Below, piece by piece: positions 75 through 51,067 of a DNA stretch of 64,000 bases. Origin of the DNA: an uncultured Bacillota bacterium. GTDB lineage: Bacteria; Bacillota; Clostridia; Oscillospirales; Oscillospiraceae. Location of the stretch: NCBI GenBank assembly GCA_947426945.1, contig CANEFX010000005.1, positions 1 through 64,000 of the forward strand. Direction: 5' to 3'. The translations under genes and the position numbers were made by a program. Below the pieces are notes generated by a model that ran no database searches, was not told the origin of the DNA, and saw only the letters and a program-made list of their open reading frames with translations. The number at the start of each line of letters is the position of its first letter. The first letter of the stretch is position 1.

Positions 75-2516
75 TCACTTTTTCATGCCGCCGGGGTTTT
101 TGGCCGGCGCTGCCTTCTGGGGCGCGGCCTTTTGCGGGGCCTCCTTTTGGACCTGCTTTTGGGCCTCCGGTTTGGGGTGGGCCTTCTGGAACTCCCGGGC
201 CATCTGCTGCTTCTCCAGGCTGGCCAGGAGGGTCTTGGAGGGGACGACCTTGGGGTCCATGGCGGGGGTGGGGACTGGGACCCTATCCACATGGAGGTGG
301 AGCTGGCCGTCCTCTCCCTTGACCAGGCTGGGCTGGGAGAGGGTAGGGGTGGCGACGACGGGCTGGCCGTTTTTCATCTGTTGTTCTATGGTGACGCCGA
401 TCTGACTCTGGAGCTGGCCGGACTGGGCCAGCCGGCCTGTGGCCTGGATGAGGGCGGGATTCTGTTCCAGGTATTCGCTCATACCCTTAAGGGTCTGGTC
501 CATTGCCAGGCCGGGCCCCAGTATCTGCACGTCATCCGGGGTCACCCGGTGGAAGATATCGGGATCGGTCCTGTTCTTCAGGAGGTCGCGCATGGTTCCG
601 CCAGCCAGAACATAGATCAGCGACTGATAGACGTCGATGTCTTTTCCAGGCGTGCTCAGGACCAGGCTGGCCCTCAGCTCCTTCCGGGACAGCTCCCCGA
701 TGTTGCTCACTCCGGCGGCCCGATCGAGGAGATTCTGTCCGAATTCGATGCCCTTTCCGGGGTGGTCCGCCTCGGCAGCCAGATAAAAGCCCTCCTGGTT
801 GCCGGGCTGGCTCATCTCCTGAAGGGCGTCGAACAGGGGACGGGAGATATCGCAGAACTGGGGCAGGACTTCCATCAGCTGCTCCCGGTTTGCGAGGTCG
901 TACTGCCTGGTCATCAGCTTGGCCTGGTCCACCAGGTCCTTCATCCCGTGGTAGAAGGTCGCGCCCAGCCAGTTGGTGTCCCCGGCGATGGCCTTTTCCA
1001 TATACAGCTTGCCCGCCGCCTGCCGCTCGGCCTGGAGCTTGGAGGGGTCCAGGATGTCCCGGACGGAGTACCCCTGAGACGCCAGCTGAAAGACGCAGGC
1101 GGTGACATGGGCGCTCCGGGAGGCCCGGAAGGAGCCGTGTCCCAGGCGGATGTTGTTTTCCGACAGCACTGAACTCAGCCTGTCCTCCGGGCCACTGCCC
1201 AGCTCCTGCTTATATTCGCTGAAAAACAGGTTTTCCGTCCGCGTCTGGGCCAGGCTCCGCTGAGCGATGCGGGCCGACTGATAGCCGTTGCGCATCTGCT
1301 CCCGGCCCTCCATCACCCGCTGGTACTCAGCGGCCTTGGCGGCCTTCTCCTTGTATAAGCCGTACTTGGCGAAATGGCGCTCCCAGGCGTTGAGGGTGAC
1401 CTTCTTCAGGGGGGAGGGCTCGTAGCCCGACTTGGTGATCTGGGTGGGCTCCTTGGGGAGCTTTCCGTTGGCGTCGGGGACAAAGGTCTCCACCCGCTTG
1501 CCCGCCATCAGCCCGGCGGACACGATCTGGTTGGTCATCTCCCGCACGTTTTCCTGGTACCACTCGTCAAACTGCATGGAATCGCCGGTGTACTGCTCTG
1601 CCATCATGGAGCGGACGGTCTTGCCGTCCACCGTGATGAGCGTTCCCCGGTCCAACTGGTCGTGGAACTCGCCCTGGTTGAACATTTCCATCTTCTCGAA
1701 CAGAGGCTGGAGGGTGCGGTCCACTGTGGCGGCGGCGTACTGGCCCACCGCCAGGGCCCCGGCCTCGGCGTTGGCGATGTCGGGGGGCATCTGCCGGCGG
1801 GACTTGCCCCAGTTCCGAGGGTTGGAGAAAAACTGCTGCTCCACGATGTGGTCGAAGTCCTGGAACTGGACGGACAGGGCTGCGGGCGCGGCGGCGGGGG
1901 CGGTACGCACTGCCTCCACCCCTTCGGGGATGGGAGCGTGGAGGATGTCGTTCAAAAAGGTCTTTGCCCGGTCGTCGGGAACCTTATCGCTCAGCCCGGC
2001 GGCGTATTCCATGGCCCCCAGGAAGCCGTCGATGCGCTGGATGCTGGCCATCTTTGTGGATTTTGCGGCGGCGTCCTGAGCCAGACGCTCGCTGGCTTCC
2101 GGTGTGGGGGCCAGCTTGGCGGCCCGCTCGATGAGGCGGATGTTGATGCAGTCGTTCTGCATGGCATCCCAGCGCTGGCCCAGGGGAGTGGAGCGGCTCT
2201 TCAGCTGCTCGAACAGTCCGCCCACATACTCCCGCACCTCCGGGGGGCGGGCGGGCAGGGCGGCCTGAAGCCTGCTCAGCCGCTCAAAGAAGGCCATATC
2301 CACCTGGCACATCTTCCCCCTGGGGTCCACGCCGGGGAATTTGGCGGTGATCTCCTGACTCTCCGGGTAGTTCCAGGGCCGCAGCTGCTCCTCGGCCCGG
2401 TCCAGGCCTACCCGCATCTCGGCCTGCAGGCGGTCGGGAGAGGTGTCCAGCATCTCCTGCTCGCCGGCGGTCAGCCTCGGGCGGTAGGGGGCATACTGTT
2501 CAAAAATGGTAGGCAT
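75..2516 (-). CDS. Uncharacterised 813-aa protein with Lys/Pro/Ala-rich C-terminal tail
   Basis: I do not recognise a named family. The protein is soluble, with no signal peptide or membrane segment. Residues 1 to about 390 are homologous to the neighbouring 390-aa gene: shared blocks include FPGVDP-GK, RPPEV, GMEYAAG, NWG, ITK-GY-P and AWER-AK-G. The second half is unique and helical in composition. The last ~50 residues are rich in Lys, Pro, Ala and Gln. The start at 2516 is chosen because AGGAGGT lies 7 bases upstream; an upstream in-frame start 29 codons earlier lacks this. It is the outermost gene of a minus-strand set beside a type IV secretion-like locus. A basic, disordered tail is common among type IV substrates, so an exported effector is one possibility; a cytoplasmic scaffold is another. 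The function is unknown. Confidence 0.8.
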   Translation of the reverse strand: MPTIFEQYAPYRPRLTAGEQEMLDTSPDRLQAEMRVGLDRAEEQLRPWNYPESQEITAKFPGVDPRGKMCQVDMAFFERLSRLQAALPARPPEVREYVGGLFEQLKSRSTPLGQRWDAMQNDCINIRLIERAAKLAPTPEASERLAQDAAAKSTKMASIQRIDGFLGAMEYAAGLSDKVPDDRAKTFLNDILHAPIPEGVEAVRTAPAAAPAALSVQFQDFDHIVEQQFFSNPRNWGKSRRQMPPDIANAEAGALAVGQYAAATVDRTLQPLFEKMEMFNQGEFHDQLDRGTLITVDGKTVRSMMAEQYTGDSMQFDEWYQENVREMTNQIVSAGLMAGKRVETFVPDANGKLPKEPTQITKSGYEPSPLKKVTLNAWERHFAKYGLYKEKAAKAAEYQRVMEGREQMRNGYQSARIAQRSLAQTRTENLFFSEYKQELGSGPEDRLSSVLSENNIRLGHGSFRASRSAHVTACVFQLASQGYSVRDILDPSKLQAERQAAGKLYMEKAIAGDTNWLGATFYHGMKDLVDQAKLMTRQYDLANREQLMEVLPQFCDISRPLFDALQEMSQPGNQEGFYLAAEADHPGKGIEFGQNLLDRAAGVSNIGELSRKELRASLVLSTPGKDIDVYQSLIYVLAGGTMRDLLKNRTDPDIFHRVTPDDVQILGPGLAMDQTLKGMSEYLEQNPALIQATGRLAQSGQLQSQIGVTIEQQMKNGQPVVATPTLSQPSLVKGEDGQLHLHVDRVPVPTPAMDPKVVPSKTLLASLEKQQMAREFQKAHPKPEAQKQVQKEAPQKAAPQKAAPAKNPGGMKK

Positions 2517-2642
2517 AGCTCGCACCTCCTGTTTTCTGGATGGTTCTATTTTATCGGAGGTCGTCGGGAAAGGAAAGCCGCGTTTTTGTATTGAGACGGT
2601 CAATTTGGAACAAAGAGCTCCCGCCGGTTTGGCAGGAGCTCC

Positions 2643-3815
2643 CTACTGGACTCGTTCGGCAGGCTTGGGAGCCTGCCGGTGCATGGCGGAGGAGGGGATG
2701 GCAAAGCCCTGCTTGGCGCAGCAGCGCTCCCAGGCGGACCGGATGGCCTTTTGGCCGGCGGGGGGCTGATAACCCGTCTTTGTAACGAGGATAGGCTCTC
2801 TCCCTCCGGGGAGGGTAATATCTACCTGACGGTCTGCCATCAGGGCGGCGGAGACACACTGAGCGGAAAGCTCCCGCAGCTGGCGGGGGGAGGAAGCAGC
2901 GGCGGCGTCCCGGTCCAGCAGATCTCGAAGAGGCGCGCCGTCCACACGGATCAGCTCCCCCCGGTCCGCTCCCCCCTTCTCCCGGACTGGCAGGAGGGCA
3001 GACAGGGTACGTTCGGCGGCGGCGGCGGCATAGGGCAGAAGCAGGGCGTCCTGATCCAGGGCGGAGGAGTCCAGCCCCGCCGCAGGCCTGCCCCAGTTCG
3101 CCGGATGGGAAAATTGAACCTGAAGCAGCCGGTGCTCAAAGTCTGGAAAGTCCACCGTCAGCCTTTCAGGAGGAACCAGCTCGCGGGCCTGCTCCAGAAC
3201 CTGCCGGGGAACAGGCGTGTAAAGTCGGTTATAAAGGTCCGCCACGTCCTCCGGCAGAGGGCCCTCTTTCACTCCGGCGGCATACTCCATTCCCTGGAGG
3301 AGAAGGTCATACCGCACCACTGCCTCCTCTGTCTCCAGAGAGCGGGCCTGCCGGCGGAGGATACGGCCGCCCTCCGGGTCCAGGCACAGCTTGCCGGCCC
3401 GGGTGAGGGTGCGGTGCCGCCGGGCGGGGGTCTCCATATCCTCAAATATCTGACGGAACTCAGGCTGTCCCGACACGGCCGTTCGAATGGCACGAACAAA
3501 TTTCTGCACCTCAGGGGGACGCAGTCGGACGCAGGCGTCCACCCGGCTGTGCCGCTGGGCAAATTTCATATCGATCACACTGTATTTGCCGACCGGATCC
3601 ACACCAGGGAATCGGATGGAGATGTCTCCGTCCTCCGGCATGGAGGGATATCCCTGAAACTGCCTTTCCGCCCGGGCCATGGCAATGGCGATGTGGGCAG
3701 CGGTGGAGGGGGGCAGACCTCCACTGTCCCGCACCGAGGCCCCGTCCAGAAGCCGCTGCTCCGCGGGCGTGAGTCGGGGATCCCTGTATTCTGAATAGAG
3801 GTCATAGAGAGCCAT
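2643..3815 (-). CDS. Uncharacterised 390-aa paralog of the N-terminal half of the 813-aa protein
   Basis: The protein aligns with the first ~390 residues of the adjacent 813-aa product, keeping FPGVDP-GK near residue 75, RPPEV near 107, GMEYAAG near 185, a PANWG block and TKTGYQP followed by AWER near the end. It stops where the longer paralog enters its unique half. There is no signal peptide or membrane segment. ATG at 3815 is preferred over GTG at 3821 because the GGAGGTG Shine-Dalgarno overlaps the GTG. The two genes are tandem, 126 bp apart, suggesting local duplication followed by loss or gain of the C-terminal half. The family is unknown. Confidence 0.78.
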   Translation of the reverse strand: MALYDLYSEYRDPRLTPAEQRLLDGASVRDSGGLPPSTAAHIAIAMARAERQFQGYPSMPEDGDISIRFPGVDPVGKYSVIDMKFAQRHSRVDACVRLRPPEVQKFVRAIRTAVSGQPEFRQIFEDMETPARRHRTLTRAGKLCLDPEGGRILRRQARSLETEEAVVRYDLLLQGMEYAAGVKEGPLPEDVADLYNRLYTPVPRQVLEQARELVPPERLTVDFPDFEHRLLQVQFSHPANWGRPAAGLDSSALDQDALLLPYAAAAAERTLSALLPVREKGGADRGELIRVDGAPLRDLLDRDAAAASSPRQLRELSAQCVSAALMADRQVDITLPGGREPILVTKTGYQPPAGQKAIRSAWERCCAKQGFAIPSSAMHRQAPKPAERVQ

Positions 3816-3845
3816 GCTCACACCTCCTCAAACACATTTTACGCT

Positions 3846-4613
3846 TCACTCCGACCGCCCCTCCCCAAGTCTGCTCTCCACCTGGGAGGCGCCGTCCCGG
3901 TCATAGCGGCCGGTGACGTAGCGGGCATAGTAGCTGCGGGTGATCTGGCGGTAAGGCCGGGAAATATTGACGGTCTCTCCGCTGTCTAAAATAAAGCTGT
4001 TCTGTTCCAGGCGGGCTGCATGGCTCAGATTGATCACATAGCTCTTGTGACAGCGGAAAAAATGGCGGTTCAGGGCAATCAGGGACTGATAATCCTTAAA
4101 GCTGGAGATGGAGCGAAACTGGCGGCCGTCGTCCATATGGAAAATGAGGCTGTGCCCCGCCGATTCCATATAGAGGATGTGGGCCATGTTCAGCCGGCTC
4201 CAGACTCCGCTGATTTTAATGGGCAGGTACTGCTCCCTGGCCTCCATCCTTCGGCGCAGCAGCCTTGCCAGGGAGGAAATCAGGTCCTCCGGGTCCAGGG
4301 GCGCAAGGAGAAAATCCGCCGCCTGAACCTCGTAGCCGAACACGGCAAGCCGGATATCTTCCCCCACCAGCACCAGCGCACAGCCGGGAATGACCCGCAT
4401 CACCTCCCGCACCCGCTCCTCCGGCTCCTCATCGGACCGGACGCTGTAGAACAGCACCTCCAGCGGCTTGTCGGTAAGAGCGGAGAGCAGACTGCGGTAC
4501 GTTTCAAAGGGGTGCACGGTAAGATCCAGACAGGAGGTCTCGATAAATTCCTCCGCCGCCTCACACTGCCGCTCCAGCTCCCGGGGCTCCGGACAGTATA
4601 TTCCGATGTGCAT
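3846..4613 (-). CDS. LytTR-family transcriptional regulator with degenerate receiver domain
   Basis: A C-terminal LytTR DNA-binding domain (about residues 130-235) is clear: the order SRLNMAHILYMES, FRSISSFKDYQ, FFRCHKSYVINL and NISRPYRQ is typical of AgrA/LytR-type binders. The N-terminal ~120 residues have the size and alternating hydrophobic pattern of a response-regulator receiver. However, the strand-3 phospho-acceptor Asp is absent (LEVLFYS where LD would be expected) and the strand-5 Lys is not seen (LLAPLDP). It is therefore unlikely to be switched by an ordinary histidine kinase, and none is nearby. It sits between the paralog pair and the giant secreted protein gene, all on the minus strand, so it may control this set. 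The Shine-Dalgarno (AAAGGAG) is rather far, about 12 bases, from the ATG. Confidence 0.85.
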   Translation of the reverse strand: MHIGIYCPEPRELERQCEAAEEFIETSCLDLTVHPFETYRSLLSALTDKPLEVLFYSVRSDEEPEERVREVMRVIPGCALVLVGEDIRLAVFGYEVQAADFLLAPLDPEDLISSLARLLRRRMEAREQYLPIKISGVWSRLNMAHILYMESAGHSLIFHMDDGRQFRSISSFKDYQSLIALNRHFFRCHKSYVINLSHAARLEQNSFILDSGETVNISRPYRQITRSYYARYVTGRYDRDGASQVESRLGEGRSE

Positions 4614-4681
4614 GGGGCGGCGTCACTCCTTTCCGACGTGTCCAGTGGTATTGTAACAGCTTGGAGCCCGGGACGCAAGGG

Positions 4682-7600
4682 TCAGCTCCCCTCTCCCCCG
4701 CTCTCTCCGCCGCCGGCATCCCCGCTGTCCGTATATTCCCCCCCGCCGACGCCGAAGTCAAGGTCAGGTTCTGGCTCAGGCGGCGGCGGGTCCTCCACGG
4801 CGATGGTGATGGGGACGGACAGCCGCTGGTCGGCGGAGCAGTGGACGGAGAAGGTATAACTGGTCCCAGCGAAGTCAGAGGAGGGGACGTAGAACGAGGC
4901 GGAGCCGTCGTTCCGGACGGTAAGCCGGTTGCTGTACTCTCCCGGGACCCAGACCCAGGAGGCGTCCGGTTTGCCCTGGACAGTGATGGCGGGAGAGAGA
5001 ATAACGGTATCTCCCGGGTAGGCGGTGACCAGGAGCGCGGAGCCGCTGGCGGCGCTGGCGGCGCTGCCGGCCAGGCTGCCCCGCCCGGTGACTGCAAAGG
5101 AGAGCAGCTGGTTGCCCGAGGACTCGTCCTCCCGCAGGAAGCCGGGCCGGATATCAATGCTCAGGGGGGCGTCGATCTTGGACCAGTTGTTCACCGTGGT
5201 CTCGCTGAGCACGGTGGTGCCGTCTGGCAGGAGGACCTGGGCTGAGGCGGAGGTGATAAACCAGTTGTCCTCCGTGGCCCTGACCGACAGGCCGGTGACA
5301 GCTTTGACATGGGGAAGCAGAAGGGTAAACTGGGTCGTAGTGCCGGCGGAGAACGCCTCCCCTTCAGGCAGGTAGGACAGCAGGTTTGTCAGCCCGACGG
5401 TGCGGGAGCCGCCGTCCAGGTCCTGATAGGTCACATCCATGTTGATGACCCCGGAGGAACCTGCGCCGGATACCACATCCTCGGTGGGGGTGGTGAACTG
5501 GAAGGTGACGGGAACCACGCAGTCGCCGCTGCCGCTCAGGGTGTTGGGGATGGAACCGGTGACAAAGGAGTCGGAGATGTAGCAGGTGCTCTCCAGATTG
5601 GCGGTGGAATTGGTCCCTGGGCTGCCTCTGTAATTGTAGATCACTGCCCGGTCCACGGTGATGTTGGGTCCGGAGCTGACCACCGACAGCCCCACGATTT
5701 CCCCAATCCCGTCGATGTCGAAGGGCAGGTCCACGATCCGGGCGCTGGAGATGGCGTTATACAGCTGCTGCTGGGTGACCTGCCCGTCCTCTCCCGTCAC
5801 CGGGGTGGTGAAATCGGTGAGGTAGAAATAGGGGGACTGGTACACTGTCTTTGTGGTGGATGGGTCCAGGGCGGTGGTGTACCGCAGAGCCACGGCGATG
5901 TCGCTGGTCTCGGGGGTGAGCTTGGCCAGCTGGCTGGAGGCGAGCTGCAGACGCACTATCTGGTTCATATCGGCGGTGGCCGACGTCCCGGAGATGGGAA
6001 CCTCCGGCTGGGTGGAGCCCAGGTTGGCGTTGCCCATGTCGAAGTAGTAGGTATCCACCAGCACGCCCCCCTTGACCCGCTCCACAATGGCGTGGCTGAT
6101 GGTGGGCCGGTTGTTGGTGTCTTCTACAGTGTCGCTCAGCTTCAGCAGGCGGATGGCGGACATGAGGCTGATATCCAGGTTTTTGGCGTACAGCACAGTC
6201 TTGCCGTCTATTTTGCCCAGCGTGCTGATCACATATTTGTTCTGGATGGGCCGCCCGCCGTAGACGGAGGTGTAGAGCAGGGTGGCGTTGACCGCGTCTC
6301 CCTCCTTGAAGGTGTAGGGCTCGGCCAGAAGGCTGCCGGAGTAGAGGTAGATATTCAGCTTCTCCCCGCTCACGTTGGGGATCCGGAAAATGGAGGTGTT
6401 CCAGCTGATGTCGTCCGAGCCGGCGGCCACTTCAATGAGGTTTTCCTGGAACGAGATGGTGGCATTGCTGTCGTTAGGGATAGACACAGCCTGGCCGTTG
6501 GTCCCCTTGGTCAGGTTGGTCTCGGTGATGGGCTTCCGGTAATACTCCTCCATGGGCGGACTGAGGAAAACCTCTCCCAGTCCGCCCACCTGGGTGACGG
6601 AGACCATGTCGATTTTCCACACCCCCTTGCCTCCGGAGCGGGTGATCTCCAGGGCGATGATGGACTCCACGTCGGTAAGGGAGACAGTAAAGCGGTCCAT
6701 ATGGGTGGGACGGTAGAGCCAGAAGGTCTTGTCGGTGTCGTTGTAGGCCTTGATCTGGGCGGTGAGGTCGAAGGCATAGGATTGCTGCTGGCCACTGCTG
6801 TCCCGGTAGTAGAGCACGGCGTTGAAGCTGCCTCCGCCCAGGGCGCTGTTGAAGGGATCGGACATCATTTTGCCCTCGCTGATTCCGGCGCTGTCCTTGC
6901 TGGTGGTGATGCAGAACAGCAGCTCCACGGCGGTGGCCACGCCGGTGACGGGGAATTCCTTCACCACCTCCACGTTGGCGCTGTCCGGCTGCGTCACATC
7001 GTCCAGTCCGTCGACGCCGTAGTCGGAGCCCTCGTCCACGTAGGTAATATCGATCCAGCCTACCCGATCCACTACCCAGCTGCGGCTGACGCCGGTGCTG
7101 CCGGACAGGGTGACATTGATTTTTTCGATGTTCAGCTTGTCGAAAACGTCGCTGGTGGAGGAGGTATTGTCGCAGATGATGCGCACCGAGCGCACATTGC
7201 CGAAGTTCTGGGTGGTCTTGATCTGGAAGGACTCGGTCATCCCCCGGCGGAAGGAGTCGGAGGCCAGCTGCTGGTTGGCCAGCACCACGCCGCTGGCCCC
7301 GTTTTCAAAGACCAGCTGGAAGTAGAAGTAGTTGCCGCTGCCTGCGTCCTCCAGATCGGCCACCTTCACGTCCACCTGGTAGGTGAACTTGGGGACGGCC
7401 AACCCCAGGTTTTTCAGCGTCTCCTCGTAGGTCATGGAGGAGGGCAGGGTGGTAAGGTACTCCACCTTCTGGACGGGCTGCTCGGGCTCGACTGGGTCCC
7501 CGCTCTCGTCGTAGCGGGTAAAGTAGATGGTGTGCTGGTTGGCCCGCTGGTGGAACAGCACGTCCTGCTTGACGTTGGCCACCAGAGGGCCGTCAAAGTC

Positions 7601-10033: not shown

Positions 10034-10248
10034 GGGAGCACCTCCTGATGTTGAATCAACCGGATATGATTTCCGGTAAAAGCTGTTGTGACAGCCTAAA
10101 TGCTATCAAGTTTTTCCGCCTAAAACAATTGCTTTTCAAAAACCGCCGTCTATCCGCAAAATTGGCAGGACCACAGGCCGTCAAGTTGTTGTATGATGAA
10201 AACACAAAAAATGGCCGGACCTTGTCCGGCAGGAAGGAGCGCAGGCGC
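10034..10248. promoter_or_regulatory. Divergent intergenic region between giant secreted protein and VirD4 genes
   Basis: This 215 bp gap must carry the promoters for both directions. A TATGAT hexamer at 10192-10197 could be a -10 element for the plus strand but has no good -35. I found no LytTR-type direct repeat. A perfect 7-bp hairpin (GCCGGAC, loop CTT, GTCCGGC; 10214-10230) ends directly before the AGGAAGGAG ribosome binding site of the VirD4 gene and might affect its translation. An open frame continues upstream from the VirD4 ATG to 10048, but it lacks a ribosome binding site and is not considered coding. Confidence 0.5.
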
Positions 10249-12246: not shown

Positions 12247-12298
12247 GGTCCTGCGGTGCACAGGTCCAGACAGACGAAATTCTGAGGAGGGACGCCCC

Positions 12299-13261
12299 TT
12301 GAGAAAATGGATTGTCTATTCTGCCCTGGCGGCGCTCCTGATCCTTACGCTGGGAGGACCGGCGGGCGCGGTCTATATGGACCCCAACTACAGCGGAGCG
12401 CTGGACCCATATACCGGCCTGCCTGTCTCCTATGCCGACGGCACGGAGCGGAAATCGGTGGTAGACCTGGGAAACTACAGCTTTGACCGGGATAAACAGC
12501 GCTATGTAATAGAGGTGGGCAACACCAGCTTTTCTGCCTCGGTGCCGCCGGGCATTATTCTGGACCGGGACGGAGAGGTGTCGGTGGAGCTGCCCGATCA
12601 GCTGACCGGGACTCTCTATAAGAACGGCGACCCGGTGGACCAGCCCGATCTGTCCCATATTTCCGGTACCGGCTCCTATCTGCTGGTAGTCCGCAGCACC
12701 GGCAGTTACGACGAGGTGCAGTTTTCCTTTACTATCCAAAGCGCCCTGACCCGCTCCTTGATGGAATACAGCCTGCCCGACGGCTTCACCTTCACCTCCG
12801 TGTCCGTCAACGGGGAGGATATTTCCGCCGGATACAGCAGCTATATTGAGTTCCAGGAGGAGGGAGAGTACCGCCTGCGGTACTCCTGTGAGGAGATTGG
12901 CCGCAGCTACAGCCTGACCTTTACTCTGGACCGGACAGCCCCCGTTCTGGCCCTGCCCGAGGTGACGGAGGGAGAGGCCTGGGGTCCTGTCACTCTGTCC
13001 GATCTGGAGGAGGGAAGCTGGGTCCAGGTGGAGTCCGGCGGCGAAGTCAGCCGAATCACCTCTGCGGCTGCGGTGCTCCGGGAACCTGGGCGCTACACCC
13101 TGACCGTCTGTGATCGGGCGGGAAATACCAATTCCTATAGCTTCATTCTTCATTTCTACCTGAATTTCAGCGCCGTGACCGCCATCGGCCTGGCTGCGGC
13201 GGCCATAGGCGGCCTGATCTTCTACAGCCGCTGGGTGCGCAAGCACGCCCGGGTAGGCTGA
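12299..13261 (+). CDS. Signal-peptide, single-pass membrane protein of the type IV-like locus
   Basis: This 320-aa protein has a signal peptide (residues 1-24, ending GGPAGA), an extracellular beta-rich part of about 260 residues, and a C-terminal membrane helix at about 288-308 followed by a short basic tail (SRWVRKHAR). That is a type I membrane topology with the body outside. The segment near 195-285 (DRTAPVLALPEV onwards, ending YTLTVCDRAGN) resembles bacterial Ig-like domains. The start is TTG at 12299 with GAGGAGG 8 bases upstream. It lies between the VirD4 and VirB6-like genes (52 and 27 bp gaps), so it is probably a structural part of the same apparatus. No named family is recognised. 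Confidence 0.8.
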   Translation: MRKWIVYSALAALLILTLGGPAGAVYMDPNYSGALDPYTGLPVSYADGTERKSVVDLGNYSFDRDKQRYVIEVGNTSFSASVPPGIILDRDGEVSVELPDQLTGTLYKNGDPVDQPDLSHISGTGSYLLVVRSTGSYDEVQFSFTIQSALTRSLMEYSLPDGFTFTSVSVNGEDISAGYSSYIEFQEEGEYRLRYSCEEIGRSYSLTFTLDRTAPVLALPEVTEGEAWGPVTLSDLEEGSWVQVESGGEVSRITSAAAVLREPGRYTLTVCDRAGNTNSYSFILHFYLNFSAVTAIGLAAAAIGGLIFYSRWVRKHARVG

Positions 13262-13288
13262 ACCAGACAACGGAGAGGAGGGCTGACA

Positions 13289-15664
13289 ATGGTGAAAAAC
13301 TGGTTAACCAAGCTACTGTTCGATTGGGTTTTTGTACTGCTGTGCAAACTGATGCAGGGTCTGCTCAAGCTGGTAGGGTTTATTGAATCCTTTTTCGATA
13401 TTTTTGCCGGAACATCCAAGGTGATGTACAAGAACAGCGGCGATTTCCTGATCAACATCTTTTTTGGTCATGACGCGGTGACCAACGCGTTCTGGGCCAT
13501 GGCCCTAATCGCCATTGTAATGGCCTTTGCGTTCTGCATCGTGGGTATGGCCCGAAAGGCGGCCGACGTCACCGACTCGGCCAAGCAGTCGGTGGGGCAG
13601 ATATTTTCCAATTTTATCCGGTGCCTGATTATCATTCTGTTGATCAACGCTATCTCCGTGGCGGCCGTCAATATCTCCAACGTGCTGCTGGACCGCATTA
13701 ATTTTGCCATGGAGAACGCCGCCATTCTGGACCGGGACGACCAGGAAAAGCATTTTTCCGACCAGGAATACGCGGCAATGGCCCGGGTGCTGGCCACGGT
13801 GGCCAACTACTCGGTCAATCCCTCCTCTGACAGCCGGTACAATATCAACAGTTGCTTTAACGCCATTCGTAACGACCTGCTGGCCCTCCATGTCAACGGC
13901 TTTTTCGATTATGACTACGACCTGGACGCCAACGGCCACCATACCTGGCAGTCGGCCCTGGCGCTGCTGGCCGCCTCGGCGGACCTGACGGTGGATCTGA
14001 ATCTGGACACCTATTACTCCGACGTGGCCTACGCCTTCCAGACGGTGAGCCGGGAAATTTCCACCTACAGCGGCTTTGCTCCTGTGGAGACCGCCCGGGT
14101 GTCTACCGACAGCGCCATCTCAACCGACGTGCTGATCTTCCTCATTGCCGGCATGGAGGCCGCTCAGAACAGCATGTACAACAACGGCAGATATGACGAC
14201 GCGCTGCGCCGGGGCTACGTTACCGGGGAAAAAAGCTATATGAACCTGAAGCAGGTCCGCCGGGATTTCGACATCTGGGATATGGATTATCTGGTGGCCT
14301 ATATCGCCTGCATTGTCTTTATCCTGATCATGGCCATCTGCATTTTCACCTTTATTGTGCGCATGTTCAACCTGCTGCTGCTCTACCTGGTGGCCCCCCT
14401 CTTTGCCTCCAGCATGCCCATAGACGACGGCAGCAAATGGCAGAGCTGGACCCAGGCTTTTGTCATCCAGCTCTTCTCCGGCTTCGGCAGCGTAATCGCC
14501 ATGCGCCTGTATCTCATTATCATCCCTGTGGCCCTCAGCAGCGATCTGATCTATTTCCCCGGCGAGGGGGTTGGCTATGCCGTACTGAACCGGATGGCCC
14601 AGCTGCTCATGGTACTGGGAGGGGCCTGGGCTGTGCTTCAGTCCAGCAGCGTCATCACCGGCATTCTGGCCGGCAACCCGGGTATGGCGGCCATTCAGCA
14701 GGAGGGCCGCATCGGGAGTATGATGACCCATGGGGCGATGTCCGCCGTGCGGGGCACCAAGCAGATCGCGGGAGGCATCCTGAAGACCCCCGGCAATATC
14801 GCGAAGAAAGCCCAGGACTCCAGGTCTCAGAGGCTGTCCAGGGCCGGCGAGAAGGAGCAGCTGGCCACCCGGAAGAGTCAGCGCGCCCAGGTCAAGGCGG
14901 ATGTGGCGCAGAACAAGGCCAAGGAGCTGCGGGAGAGCGCCAGCGCCCCGGGCGCCTCCAGCCGGCTCCGGAAACAGGCGGACAAGGCCGAGGTGAGCGC
15001 GCTGAAGAGTCAGCAGCGGGCCGACCGGGCCAAGCAGAGTGCGGCCGGTATCTATGCCAGACAGGGCGGCACCCAGAGCAAAGACAGCACGGCCGGCGTG
15101 TCCGGGCTGGGAGATACGCCGGGCTACAGGAGCCGGGGCGAGGAGCGGACCCAGGTGAAGGATCTGAAGGAACAGCAGCGGGCAGGCCGGACCGGTGGGG
15201 GGAGTCCCGCCCCGGCCCCCGTGCCGGAGGAGCCTGGCTTTTCCGAGATTCAGGTCCCCCGCAGCCGGGATGTTCAGGTCAGTGACCAGACGGCCGGGGG
15301 AGGGACGAGGACGGGCACCGGCCCCCAGACGCCCTATTCCGGCATATCTCAGGCCGCCCAAAGCCGGACCGCCCCTGCCGGCGGCCAAAGTACGGCAGTC
15401 GGGGGAGGGCAGACCGGTACCAGCTTTCAGACGTCCGATTCAGGCGTTCCCGAGATTCGGGTCTCCCGAAGCCGGACTATCCCTGCCAGCGAACAGAGGA
15501 CAGCCGGAACTTCGGCAGCCACTCCGCCGCCGTCCTCCGGTACTGCACCTAAGGCGCCTGAGCAGGAAGTGAGCGGTTTCTCCGAAATTCGGGTGACCCG
15601 GAACCGGACCGCGCCTCCTCCCCGGAATGGGACAGGCGCCCCGCCCCCAAGAGATAAGCGCTGA
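13289..15664 (+). CDS. VirB6/TrbL-like polytopic channel protein with long cytoplasmic tail
   Basis: The 791-aa protein has hydrophobic segments near residues 8-40 (amphipathic), 64-88 and 108-130, then a ~200-residue probably external region, then a cluster of membrane helices at about 333-480. This arrangement is typical of VirB6/TrbL channel proteins of Gram-positive type IV systems. The ~300-residue tail is charged and probably coiled-coil (many Lys/Arg/Gln/Ala), then Pro/Gly/Thr-rich. It carries three copies of a short motif (EIQVPRSR near 651, EIRVSRSR near 720, EIRVTRNR near 763). The next gene, a VirB4 fusion, starts 20 bp downstream. The family call rests on topology and neighbours rather than on a sequence signature. 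Confidence 0.75.
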   Translation: MVKNWLTKLLFDWVFVLLCKLMQGLLKLVGFIESFFDIFAGTSKVMYKNSGDFLINIFFGHDAVTNAFWAMALIAIVMAFAFCIVGMARKAADVTDSAKQSVGQIFSNFIRCLIIILLINAISVAAVNISNVLLDRINFAMENAAILDRDDQEKHFSDQEYAAMARVLATVANYSVNPSSDSRYNINSCFNAIRNDLLALHVNGFFDYDYDLDANGHHTWQSALALLAASADLTVDLNLDTYYSDVAYAFQTVSREISTYSGFAPVETARVSTDSAISTDVLIFLIAGMEAAQNSMYNNGRYDDALRRGYVTGEKSYMNLKQVRRDFDIWDMDYLVAYIACIVFILIMAICIFTFIVRMFNLLLLYLVAPLFASSMPIDDGSKWQSWTQAFVIQLFSGFGSVIAMRLYLIIIPVALSSDLIYFPGEGVGYAVLNRMAQLLMVLGGAWAVLQSSSVITGILAGNPGMAAIQQEGRIGSMMTHGAMSAVRGTKQIAGGILKTPGNIAKKAQDSRSQRLSRAGEKEQLATRKSQRAQVKADVAQNKAKELRESASAPGASSRLRKQADKAEVSALKSQQRADRAKQSAAGIYARQGGTQSKDSTAGVSGLGDTPGYRSRGEERTQVKDLKEQQRAGRTGGGSPAPAPVPEEPGFSEIQVPRSRDVQVSDQTAGGGTRTGTGPQTPYSGISQAAQSRTAPAGGQSTAVGGGQTGTSFQTSDSGVPEIRVSRSRTIPASEQRTAGTSAATPPPSSGTAPKAPEQEVSGFSEIRVTRNRTAPPPRNGTGAPPPRDKR

Positions 15665-15684
15665 TTTTGAATCGAGGTGAGCTC

Positions 15685-18600
15685 ATGCGTATCATCCCGC
15701 GGAAAACAAAGGTAGCCACTGAATTTTTTAAGGGGGTATCCCTGCCGGACATTCTGGTGGGCTTCTTTGGCGTGCTGGTCGTGTTTTTTGTCTTTATATC
15801 ATCTCTGCCCTTCCGGCTTTGGATCGATTTGGGACTGCTTTTTATGTTCGGATTCCTGCTGGCGCGTATTGAAGAAGAACCAAACTACATGTTTCTGTTT
15901 CGGATGCTGCGGCATTTCTCCTACATCCGCCGGTATCAGAAAATACCTTACGTTCCGGTAGAGGAGCGGGAGGACCCCACTGCCGGAATGGGCCGGCGTG
16001 AGCGGCGAAAATATCTGCGGCAGCAGAAGAAGCTCAGGAAATCGAGAACAAACAAAACCGAAGAGGACGGACAGGAGCCGTCCTTTTCGGCACGCCCGGA
16101 GCCTTTAACCGGCAAAGAAAAGCGGGCGGCCCGCAAGGCATTGAAAACAGCAAAAAAGCAGGAGAAAAAAGCAAAGAAGCAGCAAAAAAAAGCCAAAAAA
16201 GCCGAGGACCGCTTTCTAAAAAACAAAAAGATTCCCGAGGAAGAAAAAGCCTCCATCCGGGAGCGGCGCAAGCACGAAGCGGAGGAGCGCTACTATCAGG
16301 CCAAGACAGCCGAGCAAAAGCGCAAACGGGTCGATATCCAGAAAATATATCTGGTCACCGAGATTTTGGACGGCTTCATCTGCTACGGCGGAGAATATTA
16401 CGGCGCAGCCATTGAGATTCCCCCGGTGGAGTTTCGTTTTTTCAGTGAGCACCGGCAGAACAACGCCATCGACCACTGCCTTGGAAACGTGATCCGCTCC
16501 ATCGGACCCAAATACGCGGCAAATCTGGTCAAGCTGGAGCGCCCCATGGTGCTGGACGAGCATATTGAGGGAGAGTACGACAAGATCGACGCCCTCAAGC
16601 GCAGCTATGAACGGGGGGTCTTTTCCGAGGAGGAGCTGAAAGCCCGGATCGAGGTTATTTACGACCGAATTAATCAGCTTCGTCAGCGCAATTACGAGGA
16701 CAAGGTGCTCACTCCTCACTTTTACCTGGTCCTGTTTGACAGCGACAAGCGCCAGCTGGAAAACCAGGTGCGCGCCGCCCTGACCAGTCTGGCCCAGGGG
16801 GAGATGACACCCCACCGGCTGAATGACAAGGAACTGGCTGTATTTCTGCGTTATGTAAACAACGCGGATTTTGACGAGCGGGAGATCGATGATACAGACC
16901 CGGCGGACTACGCCCTGTTCACCATGCCTGAGTCTCTGGAAATCAAGTACCGCACCGCTGAGGTAAACAGTATTATCACCCACACCTTCCGGGTGGCCAA
17001 TTATCCCCTGACCGTGGACAATGCCTGGGGCGCCAATCTCTTTGACATGCCGGGGACCAAAGTAGTAATGAAATTCAGCCAGATGGACCGTGACAAGTCC
17101 ATCCGGGCCATTGACCGCTCTATCAGCGAGCTGAACAGCCAGCTGGACAAGACCTCCGTCTCCAGCCGAATTATCGAGCTGCAGACCCACATCGAAACCC
17201 TGTCCGAGCTGCTTCTCATGCTGCAGAACAACAATGAGAATCTGATTGCCATGAACATGTACGTCACGGGATATGACATTATGTCAACTCGTGAGAACAA
17301 GCTGCTGGTGCCCCAGCCACCCCCGTCGGTCCTTCCCCGGATCAGCGGCATGAAAAAAGACATCAAGCGCACCTTTACAGAGCGGGGCTTCAAGCTGTCC
17401 GACCTGTCCTTTCAGCAGTTTGAGGCCTTTGTCGCCACCCAGGTCAACGGCTACGACCCCTTTCTCAAGCAGGCCAGAGGGGTGCCCAGCGGTACGGTGG
17501 CCGCCGTATTCCCCTGGATCTATGCCAGCCTCAGCGATGAAAAGGGGCTGAACCTTGGCTCCAGCGACGGAGTGCCCACCTTTTTGGACCTCTTCCGCCG
17601 GGACGGCGAGCGTGTCAACTCCAACATGGTTATCGTTGGCAAATCGGGCGGAGGCAAATCCTATGCCACCAAGAGTATCCTGTCCAACCTGGCGGCGGAT
17701 GACTCCAAGATTTTCGTTCTGGACCCGGAAAACGAATATACCGAGCTGGCGGGCAATCTGAAAGGAAAATTCATCAATACAGCCAATGCCTCCCACGGAC
17801 GAATCAATCCCTTCCACATTATTACCTCTTTGGAGGACGATGAGGCGGAGGATGGCCAGGAGACCAGCTCCTACGCCGCCCACCTTCAGTTTCTGGAGGA
17901 GTTCTTCCGCCAGATCCTGCCCGGGATCGACGGGGACGCCATGGAATATCTCAACAACCTGATCAACCGGGTATACAGTCGGCGGAATATCGACCAGTAT
18001 ACCAACCTGAACGCCCTCAGGCCGGAGGACTATCCCATTTTTGACGACCTGTACGACTGTATTTTGGAGGAGTTCCAGCGCACCAAAAGCGACTATCTCA
18101 AATCAAATCTCCGGGTACTGATGAACTATGTCGCCAAATTTTCTACCGGAGGCCGGAACGCCAACATCTGGAACGGTCCGTCCACTCTGTCCACAGTGGA
18201 GAACTTCATCGTATTCAACTTCCAGTCCCTGCTGGCCAACCGGAACAACACGGTAGCCAACGCCCAGATGCTGCTGGTGCTGAAATATCTGGACAATGAG
18301 ATTATCAAAAACCGGGAATACAACCTGAGGTATGGAGCCAGCCGAAAAATCATCATCGTGATCGACGAGGCTCACGTCTTTATCGACGCCAAGTACCCTC
18401 TTGCCCTGGACTTTATGTTCCAGCTGGCCAAGCGCATCCGGAAATATAACGGAATGCAGATTGTCATCACCCAGAACATCAAAGACTTTGTGGGCAGCGA
18501 GGAGCTGGCCCGGAAGTCCACCGCCATCATCAACGCCTGCCAATACAGCTTTATTTTTTCTCTGGCCCCCAACGACATGCACGATCTCTGCACCCTGTAC

Positions 18601-19554
18601 GAGAAGGCGGGGGGAATCAACGAGAGCGAGCAGGAACAGATCATCTCCGCTGCCCGGGGTCAGGCTTTTGTGGTCACAGGGCCGTCCAGCCGGGCCGCTG
18701 TCCAGATAGAAACTCCCCAGGCCATTGAGGACCTGTTCACCAACCCGGTATACGCCACCCATTTCTTCGGCGGCGAAGAGGGGGCCCAGGTGTGGGAGGA
18801 CGAGATTGGCCCCAGCCGTTCCCTTCGCCAGGCCTGGGAAGATGAGCAGTCCGCTCCGTCTGCCGCCGCACAGGAGGAGGAGAACCTGCCCGACTTTCGA
18901 CAGAAGGAGGTCTCCATGATCGAAGTGGAGGACGGAGAGGAGGAGATCCTGCTGATGGGAGACGGCGCTTCCCCCGGCCAGGAGCTGCCCAGACACATGC
19001 TCCTCCAGGCGGAGGAAGAGGAGGAGGGCCCGTTCAGTCCCGCTGCCCTGCAGCGCTACGGCTTCGAGGCCCTGGTGGGAGAAATCCGCCGTACCGTCCG
19101 TCAGGAGCTGGCAAATGAGCGCGTGTCCTCGCTCCCGGAGGATATTCCTGCCAACGCTGAGGAACGCTGGCCCTCCCCGGCGGAATTCGATTTTTCTGCC
19201 CCGCCGGAGCAATCTGCCGAGACCTTTCCGGACATGGCGGCTTTCCCACCGGAACCTGACGACAATGAGGAAAACCCCTTTGCAAACCTGTTTGCCCCTC
19301 CCACACCCGCGCAGCCGCTGTGGGAGCCTCCTCCGGCTCGAGAGGAGCCCGCCGATCTGAACAGCCTCTTTGCCGAGCTGTTTCAGGCCCAGGAGGAAGC
19401 CGCGCAGCAGCCGGAGAATCGCCCCTGGTTTTCCGATGTACCGGAGGAACCAGAGGTTGAGGAAGCGCCCGTTCCGGAGGAGGAAACAGAATTTGAGGAG
19501 CTACCTCTGGTCTATGAGGTCACGCTGGAACAGCTGTTGGCCATGACCGACTAA
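15685..19554 (+). CDS. PrgI-VirB4 fusion ATPase of a type IV secretion-like system
   Basis: This 1289-aa protein contains, in order: a PrgI-like N-terminus (residues 1-90, beginning MRIIPRKTKV, with two membrane helices); a ~110-residue Lys/Arg-rich coiled-coil linker; a VirB4/TraC-type ATPase with P-loop GKSGGGKSY near 650, Walker B IIVIDEAHVF near 890 and the phrase ITQNIKDF; and a ~240-residue acidic Glu/Pro tail. VirB4 powers substrate transfer and assembly. In Gram-positive conjugative elements PrgI and VirB4 are usually separate neighbouring genes. ATG at 15685 is preferred over TTG at 15667 because GAGGTG lies 5 bases upstream. The acidic tail could pair with basic partners such as the tail of the 813-aa protein (inference). 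Confidence 0.92.
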   Translation: MRIIPRKTKVATEFFKGVSLPDILVGFFGVLVVFFVFISSLPFRLWIDLGLLFMFGFLLARIEEEPNYMFLFRMLRHFSYIRRYQKIPYVPVEEREDPTAGMGRRERRKYLRQQKKLRKSRTNKTEEDGQEPSFSARPEPLTGKEKRAARKALKTAKKQEKKAKKQQKKAKKAEDRFLKNKKIPEEEKASIRERRKHEAEERYYQAKTAEQKRKRVDIQKIYLVTEILDGFICYGGEYYGAAIEIPPVEFRFFSEHRQNNAIDHCLGNVIRSIGPKYAANLVKLERPMVLDEHIEGEYDKIDALKRSYERGVFSEEELKARIEVIYDRINQLRQRNYEDKVLTPHFYLVLFDSDKRQLENQVRAALTSLAQGEMTPHRLNDKELAVFLRYVNNADFDEREIDDTDPADYALFTMPESLEIKYRTAEVNSIITHTFRVANYPLTVDNAWGANLFDMPGTKVVMKFSQMDRDKSIRAIDRSISELNSQLDKTSVSSRIIELQTHIETLSELLLMLQNNNENLIAMNMYVTGYDIMSTRENKLLVPQPPPSVLPRISGMKKDIKRTFTERGFKLSDLSFQQFEAFVATQVNGYDPFLKQARGVPSGTVAAVFPWIYASLSDEKGLNLGSSDGVPTFLDLFRRDGERVNSNMVIVGKSGGGKSYATKSILSNLAADDSKIFVLDPENEYTELAGNLKGKFINTANASHGRINPFHIITSLEDDEAEDGQETSSYAAHLQFLEEFFRQILPGIDGDAMEYLNNLINRVYSRRNIDQYTNLNALRPEDYPIFDDLYDCILEEFQRTKSDYLKSNLRVLMNYVAKFSTGGRNANIWNGPSTLSTVENFIVFNFQSLLANRNNTVANAQMLLVLKYLDNEIIKNREYNLRYGASRKIIIVIDEAHVFIDAKYPLALDFMFQLAKRIRKYNGMQIVITQNIKDFVGSEELARKSTAIINACQYSFIFSLAPNDMHDLCTLYEKAGGINESEQEQIISAARGQAFVVTGPSSRAAVQIETPQAIEDLFTNPVYATHFFGGEEGAQVWEDEIGPSRSLRQAWEDEQSAPSAAAQEEENLPDFRQKEVSMIEVEDGEEEILLMGDGASPGQELPRHMLLQAEEEEEGPFSPAALQRYGFEALVGEIRRTVRQELANERVSSLPEDIPANAEERWPSPAEFDFSAPPEQSAETFPDMAAFPPEPDDNEENPFANLFAPPTPAQPLWEPPPAREEPADLNSLFAELFQAQEEAAQQPENRPWFSDVPEEPEVEEAPVPEEETEFEELPLVYEVTLEQLLAMTD

Positions 19555-21346: not shown

Positions 21347-21918
21347 TGACACAGACAGAACAACAGCCTTCTCTGCCCCAGGTGGTAAAGGGCGCCCGGG
21401 AATATTACGACGCCATTCAGAAGCTGTGTGACCTGCGCTATGGTACCGGCTACATTGATAAATCGACCTATGAGAAATGGCTGGAACACCCGGAACTGAT
21501 GAGCATTGCCCTGATTGAGGGAGAATTTGCGGGTTTTTCTGTCTTTATCCCCACTGGTATCGAGGAGCTGATGTCCCATATGGACATGCCTCGGGAAGAT
21601 GTGACGCACATCGTGGGAGACAGGCCCGCCCTCATCTATAAGAGCGCCGCCGTGCCCTTCCAATTTGAGAAGCAGGGCGTCATGCAGCAGCTGCTGGGTT
21701 CTGCTTTGAAAGAGCTGCCAAGACTGGGTTACGGCAGCATTTTCGGTTCGGCGTGGATGTATGACGGCAGGATCCCCATGTCCCGTCTGTTCGATCTCTT
21801 TGGATTTCACCAGCTGTACAGGCGCAGAATGCTCTGGTACTACGATGAAAATTACCACTGTGTGGTGTGCGGCGGCCGCTGCAAATGCGACGCCATGATC
21901 TACTATAAGCAATTGTGA
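21343..21918 (+). CDS. GNAT-like acetyltransferase with C-terminal cysteine cluster
   Basis: The 191-aa protein has the length and strand/helix pattern of a GNAT N-acetyltransferase. A possible acetyl-CoA loop is EKQGVMQQLL near residue 108, and LFDLFGF near 150 resembles the common GNAT ending. The last 20 residues contain CVVCGGRCKC, a Cys cluster that may bind metal and is not typical of the family. It overlaps the MATE fusion gene by 4 bases and is followed after 11 bases by the phosphatase gene, so all are probably translated from one message. The substrate is unknown; the GNAT call is moderate. Confidence 0.6.
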   Translation: MMTQTEQQPSLPQVVKGAREYYDAIQKLCDLRYGTGYIDKSTYEKWLEHPELMSIALIEGEFAGFSVFIPTGIEELMSHMDMPREDVTHIVGDRPALIYKSAAVPFQFEKQGVMQQLLGSALKELPRLGYGSIFGSAWMYDGRIPMSRLFDLFGFHQLYRRRMLWYYDENYHCVVCGGRCKCDAMIYYKQL

Positions 21919-21929
21919 GGGGAACTGGT

Positions 21930-25243: not shown

Positions 25244-25329
25244 TCAATCCATTCTATGAGCGGAGCCTACAATGGGTACACGCATACCGGACAAGTCGGC
25301 CTCCATAGGATAGGGAGGAGGTGGTCACA

Positions 25330-50993: not shown

Positions 50994-51067
50994 AATTGGT
51001 TCCACTCCTTATCGTTTGGTATCGCCCCGATCAAAAGCCGAATGTCGGGCGTTACACGCTGTTAGTC

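What the first reader, a model, noticed from the sequence alone, without database searches (positions are those of the whole stretch)
75..19554. Type IV secretion-like locus without relaxase, paired with a giant secreted protein
A VirD4 coupling ATPase, a VirB6-like protein, a PrgI-VirB4 fusion and a one-TM surface protein lie divergent from a 1783-residue secreted protein, a LytTR regulator and two paralogous proteins of unknown family. Conjugative elements normally carry a relaxase, a peptidoglycan hydrolase and an integrase; none is present from 75 to 24000, and the locus runs into ordinary chromosomal spore genes. This could be a resident system that exports protein to neighbours or host. 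The set beyond the left edge is not visible, so absence is only within the window.
Basis: partly seen in the sequence, partly recalled or inferred. Interest (0 to 1): 0.78.

Follow-up and report, generated by a model that had tools for sequence, protein, structure and literature searches.

The report
Relaxase-less secretion machine in gut Clostridia
Some gut and rumen Clostridia carry on their chromosome a machine built from conjugation parts, with no recognised enzyme to start DNA transfer, tied to a giant secreted protein and probably used to export a fast-changing set of proteins.

Summary
In detail: VirD4, a one-TM protein, VirB6 and PrgI-VirB4 stand divergent from a 1783-aa secreted protein, a LytTR regulator and two paralogues, without recognised relaxase or hydrolase. 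The left edge is a contig end; STAS, a VirB2-like pilin and a third paralogue lie on other contigs of the genome. The set is a conserved module of Clostridia: in 14 well-held loci the giant protein is in 13, VirB6 in 14, VirD4 in 13, and VirB4 and giant-protein distances correlate at r=0.91. Three relaxase families are absent from the module's contigs in 14 genomes that could be placed, and from 8 of these genomes altogether. The giant protein has its own signal peptide, so it is probably part of the apparatus; better cargo candidates are the paralogues and other large, fast-diverging cytosolic proteins beside the operon. 'Resident' is only partly right: distribution is patchy, sites differ, and transposase remnants flank two copies. 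Export itself is inferred. Structure prediction failed.

The parts
75..2516 (-). Protein A, 813 aa, cytosolic by sequence, candidate T4SS substrate; Lys/Pro/Gln/Ala-rich tail ending NPGGMKK
   Evidence: no family hit; A/B family in 4 of 64 genus genomes (own included), 3 of them with the giant protein; no strong hydrophobic segment; several relatives end GGRTK, GGRAK or GGRSK
2643..3815 (-). Protein B, 390 aa, paralogue of the N-terminal half of A, candidate substrate
   Evidence: 34% identical to A; its own tail lacks the GGR ending that the G003 and G736 orthologues have
3846..4613 (-). LytTR-type regulator with receiver-like N-terminus
   Evidence: LytTR E 6e-11; weak response-regulator hits, far below cut-offs
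4682..10033 (-). Giant secreted protein, 1783 aa, signal-peptide-like N-terminus, PLAT domain 885-986; proposed outer part of the machine
10034..10248 (.). Divergent promoter region; AAATGCTATCAA at 10098-10109, proposed shared regulatory site
   Evidence: the relaxed 11-base form occurs once in 84 kb of own contig and in the same region of G003 (twice), G736, L040 and L042; not in L107, nor on C46, C13, the C3 stretch or the G023 contig
10249..12246 (+). VirD4-type coupling ATPase (CD1115 family)
   Evidence: NF045973 287.5 bits (cut-off 250)
12299..13261 (+). Protein F: signal-peptide-like N-terminus, ectodomain with only sub-threshold Ig-like hits, C-terminal TM and short basic tail
   Evidence: later TM in 61 of 61 family members, tail R[VI][RGK] in 43 of 63
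13289..15664 (+). VirB6-like polytopic protein
   Evidence: NF045848 155.9 bits (cut-off 90)
15685..19554 (+). PrgI(VirB3)-VirB4 fusion ATPase
   Evidence: NF045975 531.5 bits (cut-off 590); 30 rows of its clade form one side of a branch, SH-aLRT 99
19583..21346 (+). MATE transporter fused to HATPase_c_2; associated accessory gene
   Evidence: G003 and G736 have a MATE-like gene at the other end of the island, 25.5% identical in G003
21343..21918 (+). GNAT-like protein, associated
   Evidence: no Pfam hit at E 0.001; name by eye
21915..23564 (+). SpoIIE-type PP2C phosphatase, associated partner-switching gene
   Evidence: E 2.6e-45
23557..23967 (+). RsbW-like HATPase, associated partner-switching gene
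   Evidence: E 9e-24

Best explanation
This is a chromosomal type IV secretion machine of the monoderm (PrgI-VirB4) kind, without a recognised relaxase, that has been turned from conjugation to protein export. Shown by sequence: a conserved module of pilin, VirD4, the type-I membrane protein F, VirB6, PrgI-VirB4 and a giant extracellular protein, often with STAS, RsbW-like and PP2C genes; no member of three relaxase families on its placed contigs; and, beside it, several large cytosolic proteins of fast-diverging families that in the two genera tested occur almost only in genomes with the module. Inferred: VirD4 recognises the flexible C-terminal tails of those cytosolic proteins (A and B here; families X, Y and Z in Pseudobutyrivibrio). 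VirB4, VirB6 and PrgI move them across the membrane. The pilin, F and the Sec-exported giant protein form the route or docking structure through and beyond the cell wall. LytTR or ECF control plus STAS/RsbW/PP2C partner switching decides when it is made or active. The target (neighbouring bacterium, protozoan, host or own surface) is unknown.
For: Module: of 82 sources (some near-copies), VirB4 in 80, giant 68, VirB6 67, F 64, VirD4 59, STAS 48, pilin 44 (L048 and L055, misread by my gene caller, count as misses). In 14 loci with over 9 kb on both sides (L039, L041, L048, L055 left out): giant 13, VirB6 14, F 14, VirD4 13, pilin 10, STAS 9; giant within two genes downstream of VirB4 in 56 of 63. 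Shared history: VirB4-giant r 0.91, n 58, 0 of 199 shuffles as high, against 0.76 VirB6, 0.74 VirD4, 0.38 pilin. Pilin PF18895: exactly one over cut-off in each of 10 genomes searched. Relaxases: with a control inside G003, where 3 of 4 other VirB4-like contigs (C31, C9, C22; not C29) carry one. Plasmids: giant on 0 of 72,556 records; best listed VirB4 matches 27-30% identical. Cargo: family Y in exactly the 4 of 29 Pseudobutyrivibrio genomes with VirB4. A/B family in 4 of 64 genus genomes, 3 of them with the giant. An A/B profile finds members at two further copies of the module, L086 (1e-18) and G477 (1e-10), among 1087 ORFs (those ORFs all come from around the module, so this shows recurrence there, not absence elsewhere). 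In Pseudobutyrivibrio candidate pairs are 23-42% identical, VirD4 87-88%, giant 60-63%, VirB4 81% in the one full pair aligned. Tails: N+K+P+Q+E fraction 0.47 in 40 candidates against 0.26 in 291 other ORFs; in other loci 11 of 44 neighbours meet a fixed tail criterion against 2 of 67 distant ORFs, or 8 of 41 without three already used (near and distant sets come from partly different genomes).
Against: No export has been shown. G023 has two A/B-like genes with no giant or close VirB4 found (87% complete, 4-kb contig). Families A/B, X and Y are not shown to be one superfamily: hhalign A-X E 0.029, A-Y 0.71, X-Y 0.29. The C-terminal GG motif was chosen after looking (13 of 40 against 8 of 291), and B of the window lacks it. 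No VirB8-like or VirB1-like protein was recognised. VirD4 is displaced or not in view in some loci. No toxin domain in the candidates scanned. Relaxase families Mob_Pre, TrwC and MOBC were not searched; three of 17 searched genomes could not be placed. Mycoplasma elements related to this VirB4 transfer DNA although no relaxase gene is named in the passages I read. Transposase and integrase pieces flank two copies.
Confidence: 0.52

Rival explanations
1. It is a mobile conjugative element, or the remains of one, whose relaxase is of an unrecognised kind, perhaps one of the large cytosolic proteins, moved by a Mutator-type transposase as in mycoplasma ICEs.
For: Patchy distribution, differing sites, G003 and G736 islands 96-97% identical over about 32.6 kb, Mutator-type transposase pieces at the same end of both and an integrase piece in G736. 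Its VirB4, VirB6 and pilin match models named after mycoplasma ICEs, whose studied member belongs to the Mutator-like superfamily (PMC6030558, abstract start, passages).
Against: No hit of three relaxase families on any placed module contig. Several divergent candidate proteins per locus, whereas an element needs one relaxase. GC of the locus matches its surroundings, 60.4 against 59.1%. Giant protein on none of 72,556 plasmid records. No integrase seen in the flanks of G457, G453 or G326 (by eye).
Confidence: 0.24
2. It is an adhesion or pilus organelle derived from a T4SS: the pilin and the giant PLAT protein are the working parts, and A, B and their like stay in the cell as assembly or regulatory factors.
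For: The giant protein follows VirB4 more closely than any other part compared and is extracellular by sequence; no toxin domain in the candidates scanned.
Against: A VirD4 coupling ATPase is kept in 59 of 82 sources and in 13 of 14 well-held loci, which a pilus alone should not need. The candidates diverge faster than the machine.
Confidence: 0.16
3. It releases or takes up DNA (competence or DNA secretion) rather than protein.
For: VirD4, VirB4 and VirB6 are DNA-pump parts; reduced DNA-importing T4SS variants exist in archaea (Ced, Ted; PMC12102498 introduction).
Against: No DNA-processing genes recognised in the module; does not explain the linked large cytosolic proteins.
Confidence: 0.06

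Closest known systems
Mycoplasma/Spiroplasma ICE-type T4SS (Mbov_0395/0396/0397 families)
   Same: VirB4 matches that model best, VirB6 models over cut-off, pilin model over cut-off in the L103 relative; the 12 plasmid VirB4 matches listed are all Spiroplasma
   Different: Window VirB4 below that model's cut-off; 27-30% identity to the listed plasmid ones; no complete DDE transposase or element ends found; adds giant protein, F, STAS/RsbW/PP2C and candidate cargo
Patescibacteria T4SS (PMC12102498)
   Same: Monoderm, chromosomal, relaxase absent from most clusters, VirB2-like pilins (abstract, introduction, passages)
   Different: Reported as ubiquitous in its phylum and, in one species, with six pilins and VirB1- and VirB8-like parts (review passage); this one is patchy in Clostridia, one pilin per genome searched, with giant protein and large cytosolic candidates; clade relation not tested
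Streptococcus suis 89K T4SS (protein-exporting, Gram-positive)
   Same: Gram-positive, VirB4 and VirD4, protein export reported (PMC12857230 passages)
   Different: That island has VirB1 and VirB8, not recognised here; its reported cargo is a subtilisin-like protease, here the candidates are large cytosolic proteins of unknown family
MPF_FATA conjugation systems of Firmicutes (CD1110/CD1115 type)
   Same: VirD4 is over the CD1115-family cut-off
   Different: VirB4 only 141 bits against CD1110 (cut-off 325); other VirB4-like genes in the genus are 24-32% identical and the 13 rows used lie outside the clade
Xanthomonas/Stenotrophomonas bacteria-killing T4SS
   Same: T4SS with a set of cargo sharing a C-terminal XVIPCD signal (abstract starts in listing; lack of relaxase recalled)
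   Different: Diderm machine; at least one cargo there is a GH-19-like enzyme (listing); no such domain found here

Membership tests
Type IV secretion system | VirB4 ATPase | tested here: met
   TraG P-loop E 2.9e-20; TIGR00929 E 1e-19; NF045975 531.5 bits
Type IV secretion system | VirD4 coupling protein | tested here: met
   NF045973 287.5 bits over cut-off 250
Type IV secretion system | VirB6-like channel protein | tested here: met
   NF045848 155.9 over cut-off 90
Type IV secretion system | VirB3/PrgI | tested here: inconclusive
   Fused N-terminus read by eye and co-aligned; no PrgI HMM hit
Type IV secretion system | VirB2-like pilin | tested here: met
   own genome G000:C13:2230-2409, 47.2 bits over cut-off 26.6; on another contig of the draft
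MPF_FATA conjugation machine | VirB8-like protein | tested here: not met
   No VirB8 hit; remote forms could be missed and no fold comparison could be run
MPF_FATA conjugation machine | VirB1-like peptidoglycan hydrolase (CHAP, SLT) | tested here: not met
   No hit; an Amidase_3 outside the set at 25321-26043 looks like a sporulation gene (inference)
Integrative conjugative element | Relaxase | tested here: not met
   PF03432, PF03389, PF02486 absent from module contigs of 14 placed genomes; Mob_Pre, TrwC, MOBC not searched; 3 of 17 searched genomes not placed
Integrative conjugative element | Integrase or transposase that moves it | tested here: inconclusive
   None by eye in window 75-25000; Mutator-type transposase pieces at G003 and G736, integrase piece at G736; flanks not scanned as a whole
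Integrative conjugative element | Self-transfer | not testable with these tools
   Needs mating experiments
Mbov_0397 mycoplasma ICE T4SS | VirB4 over the family cut-off | tested here: not met
   531.5 against 590
Patescibacteria T4SS | VirB4 inside the Patescibacteria clade | not tested
   No Patescibacteria sequences were fetched
Effector-delivering T4SS | VirD4-dependent protein export | not testable with these tools
   Only linkage, co-occurrence and tail composition

The most novel reading that the evidence does not exclude
A dedicated protein-delivery T4SS of Gram-positive bacteria, widespread though patchy in rumen and gut Clostridia: a pilus-bearing machine whose cell-wall and surface stage is a giant Sec-exported PLAT protein, delivering several fast-evolving large proteins marked by a C-terminal tail into neighbouring cells, under partner-switching control.
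Probability: 0.33. Interest if true: 0.92.

Novelty: new variant of a known kind. Interest (0 to 1): 0.78.

Why it matters
[quoted passage not shown] suis 89K island and the Patescibacteria systems (PMC12857230, passages). This module would add a clade found in rumen and gut Clostridia, with specific candidate cargo, one clear outer component and named isolates among the carriers (Ruminococcus flavefaciens YRD2003, Eubacterium ruminantium FB3002). It makes the question directly testable by gene removal and secretome comparison, and it may reveal a new form of contact between gut microbes.

Tried and rejected
Giant protein as the exported cargo: set aside because of its signal-peptide-like N-terminus (50 of 67 members by a simple hydrophobicity rule) and its shared history with VirB4. 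Fixed chromosomal residence: not upheld. Phage or anti-phage origin of the candidates: no PADLOC hit for A, B, X, Y, Z or W members scanned; two weak PHROGs hits, G477:6283 to an exonuclease family (E 0.0014) and a W member to an unknown family (E 0.037). Solved-structure relatives: giant core, four weak trypsin-inhibitor-type hits (E 0.13); A family, none. One superfamily for A/B, X and Y: profile comparisons do not show it; an X-G041 link is weak (E 4e-5 and 8e-5). A seeded iterative search joined A/B, X and a G041 protein, but its seed already held all three, so it is not used as evidence. Common-site test: flank blastp found no shared neighbourhood, only a few paralogue-level matches, a transposase piece shared by G003 and G736, and one EF-G-like gene near the window and G003 copies at different distance and relative orientation; only 2 flank genes were available for G736. 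Class survey: 15 of 393 (own included), of which 9 lie in one small-genome family whose gene context I did not examine. The tree is a quick build with very long branches; its outgroup rows come only from the same genus or order.

Literature: searches listed no paper that by title or abstract start describes this system (one search showed 15 of 179). I saw listings only, apart from PMC12102498 (abstract, introduction, passages), PMC12857230 (passages) and PMC6030558 (passages). The library lacks most subscription papers and preprints.


Full report
What is there. The window is the first 64 kb of contig C5 (118 kb) of a 2.4-Mb draft genome, and position 1 is the contig end. Reading rightward from a 215-bp divergent region are VirD4, protein F, a VirB6-like protein and a PrgI-VirB4 fusion, then a MATE-HATPase fusion, a GNAT-like protein, a SpoIIE-type PP2C and an RsbW-like HATPase. 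Reading leftward are the 1783-aa secreted protein with a PLAT domain, a LytTR regulator and the paralogues B and A.

The rest of the set. A same-genus genome (G003, contig C4) has A, B, LytTR, giant, VirD4, F, VirB6, VirB4, PP2C and HATPase in one run, followed beyond A by a histidine kinase, a secreted protein, a response regulator, STAS and a VirB2-like pilin. G736 has the same island, 96-97% identical over about 32.6 kb. In the window's genome, contig C46 carries a third A-type gene, the kinase and the secreted protein, and contig C13 the response regulator (82% to G736), STAS (94%) and pilin (89%). The order C5, C46, C13 is an inference from gene order; no join was made.

A conserved module. 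Clustering of ORFs from 82 sources (79 of those loci, leaving out L041 as a copy of G003, plus the window, G003 and G041; some are near-copies, and L048 and L055 were misread by my gene caller) gave VirB4 in 80, giant 68, VirB6 67, F 64, VirD4 59, STAS 48, pilin 44, c7 41, c8 35, c9 29, HATPase 22. Many loci are cut by contig ends; in the 14 with over 9 kb on both sides (L039, L041, L048, L055 left out) the counts are VirB4 14, giant 13, VirB6 14, F 14, VirD4 13, pilin 10, STAS 9, c7 9, c8 9, c9 7, HATPase 3, PP2C 1. A frequent order is regulator, pilin, c9, VirD4, F, VirB6, VirB4, STAS, giant, c7, c8, HATPase. By hydrophobicity c7 and c9 are anchored or secreted and c8 is cytosolic. Thirty VirB4 rows of this module form one side of a branch against 13 other VirB4-like rows from the same genus and order, SH-aLRT 99, in a quick tree with very long branches. 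Within it the four Flavonifractor-group rows cluster together and the two Pseudobutyrivibrio rows cluster together, but Ruminococcus rows sit inside a mainly Lachnospiraceae group, so inheritance is not purely vertical.

The giant protein. Its distances follow those of VirB4 more closely (r 0.91, 58 loci, 0 of 199 shuffles as high) than those of VirB6 (0.76), VirD4 (0.74), F (0.81), STAS (0.83), c7 (0.80) or pilin (0.38) do. This shows shared inheritance, not contact. The PLAT region is its most conserved part. By a simple hydrophobicity rule 50 of 67 members have a hydrophobic N-terminus and 0 of 67 a later membrane segment. It therefore probably leaves by Sec, and I read it as an outer structural or docking part, not as T4SS cargo. 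The divergent region shared by giant and machine keeps AAATGCTATCAA or a near form in four relatives: once in the window's 84 kb, twice in G003, once each in G736, L040 and L042, none in L107; about 0.3 chance matches were expected in the 249 kb simulated.

No recognised relaxase. PF03432, PF03389 and PF02486 were searched in 17 carrier genomes. For 14 I know contigs of the module (for G546, G547, G682 and G712 only that of the giant protein), and none of these contigs carries a hit. Eight of the 14 (G457, G453, G630, G591, G546, G547, G682, G041) have no hit of any of the three. The other three (G744, G745, G746) have hits on contigs that I could not compare with the module's. Inside G003 the same searches find a relaxase on three of the four other contigs with a VirB4-like gene (C31, C9, C22; not C29), so they work on this material. 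Mob_Pre, TrwC and MOBC were not searched. The giant protein is on none of 72,556 plasmid records, and the 12 listed VirB4 matches there are 27-30% identical, in Spiroplasma.

Not a fixed resident. Counting the query genome, the giant protein is in 3 of 64 genomes of the genus, VirB4 in 4 of 29 Pseudobutyrivibrio and 15 of 393 genomes spread over the class, and the giant in 9 of 250 of one family. Neighbouring genes differ: ftsL/penicillin-binding-protein-like genes and cotJ in the window's genome, spoIIGA-sigE-like genes and a LysR gene in G003, other housekeeping genes in three Pseudobutyrivibrio (names mostly by eye). Pieces of Mutator-type transposases lie at the HATPase end in both G003 and G736, and an integrase piece at the other end in G736. 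GC is that of the surroundings (60.4 against 59.1%). I conclude that the module is chromosomal but moves or is lost often.

Candidate cargo. In Pseudobutyrivibrio the operon is enclosed by large cytosolic proteins of several families (X, Y, Z, W), 400-1000 aa, without a Pfam hit over cut-off in those scanned. Family Y is found in exactly the 4 of 29 genomes that carry VirB4; in G473 it lies on a separate contig. VirD4 there is 87-88% identical, VirB6 63-69, giant 60-63, VirB4 81 in the one full pair, while candidate pairs are 23-42%. Between window and G003 VirD4 is 89%, HATPase 83, VirB4 81, LytTR 74, F 69, giant 67, B 61, A 56 and VirB6 63 including its low-complexity tail. An A/B profile built from five proteins finds two further proteins below E 1e-9 among 1087, L086 (1e-18) and G477 (1e-10). 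The genome-wide test is: the A/B family is in 4 of 64 genus genomes, three of them with the giant; G023 is the exception, with no giant and no close VirB4 found. The window's genome also has an orphan B-like gene on contig C3.

Tails. Of 40 candidates, 37 have no strong hydrophobic segment (the three W members have one); the last 50 residues are 0.47 N+K+P+Q+E against 0.26 in 291 other ORFs. Many A/B relatives end GGRTK, GGRAK, GGRTM or GGRSK (A itself GGMKK; B of the window does not), and a few Pseudobutyrivibrio proteins end GGPHV, GGPRL or GGPKI. The motif was chosen after looking: 13 of 40 against 8 of 291. With a fixed tail criterion, 11 of 44 non-core neighbours in other loci meet it against 2 of 67 distant ORFs, p 0.0006; without three proteins already used, 8 of 41, p 0.006; the two sets come from partly different genomes, so base composition may play a part. 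C-terminal signals are common for T4SS cargo (recalled).

Mechanism. Shown: composition, linkage, co-occurrence and lack of recognised relaxase. Inferred: VirD4 picks A-type proteins by their tails, VirB4/VirB6/PrgI translocate them, and pilin, F and giant carry them through or dock the cell to a partner, under LytTR or ECF and STAS/RsbW/PP2C control. The target is unknown.

Known or new. The parts place it in the T4SS superfamily near mycoplasma ICE machines, but it fails the relaxase test for an ICE as far as run and misses the NF045975 cut-off. It resembles the Patescibacteria systems in lacking a recognised relaxase and keeping a pilin. Nine literature searches listed no description. I file it as a new variant of a known kind.

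Noticed in passing
window 24705-25181 (-): One ORF matches both CotJA and CotJB, next to a Mn-catalase/CotJC-like gene at 24090-24704: two spore-coat domains in one frame.
   Followed up: no
window 25321-26043 (+): N-acetylmuramoyl-L-alanine amidase (Amidase_3) about 1.4 kb right of the HATPase gene; a peptidoglycan hydrolase near the set but probably a sporulation gene.
   Followed up: no
window 19583-21346 (+): MATE transporter with a C-terminal RsbW-like HATPase domain in one protein; MATE-like genes also accompany the islands of G003 and G736.
   Followed up: partly
L136:9177-10280 (G000:C3): Orphan B-like gene far from the island in the same genome, ending GGRTM.
   Followed up: partly
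L137:109-831 (G736:C28): Integrase-like N-terminal piece at a contig edge beside the island.
   Followed up: partly
G063, G097, G145, G166, G205, G289, G302, G318, G408: Nine genomes of 0.8-1.2 Mb in one family carry a VirB4 that matches this clade's profile; gene context not examined. Small genomes with such a machine would be worth a look.
   Followed up: no
L088, L090: In these loci VirB4-STAS precede ECF-pilin-c9-VirD4-F-VirB6 and no giant protein is in view: a rearranged or giant-less variant.
   Followed up: no
L036, L152 (G041): Distant version with several VirB6-like paralogues, one pilin, ECF, VirD4-like and F-like genes, VirB4, STAS and tandem large cytosolic proteins; no giant protein on the two contigs seen.
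   Followed up: partly
window 48921-51005 (-): EF-G-like gene with a 95.5% identical copy 6.7 kb from the G003 island.
   Followed up: no
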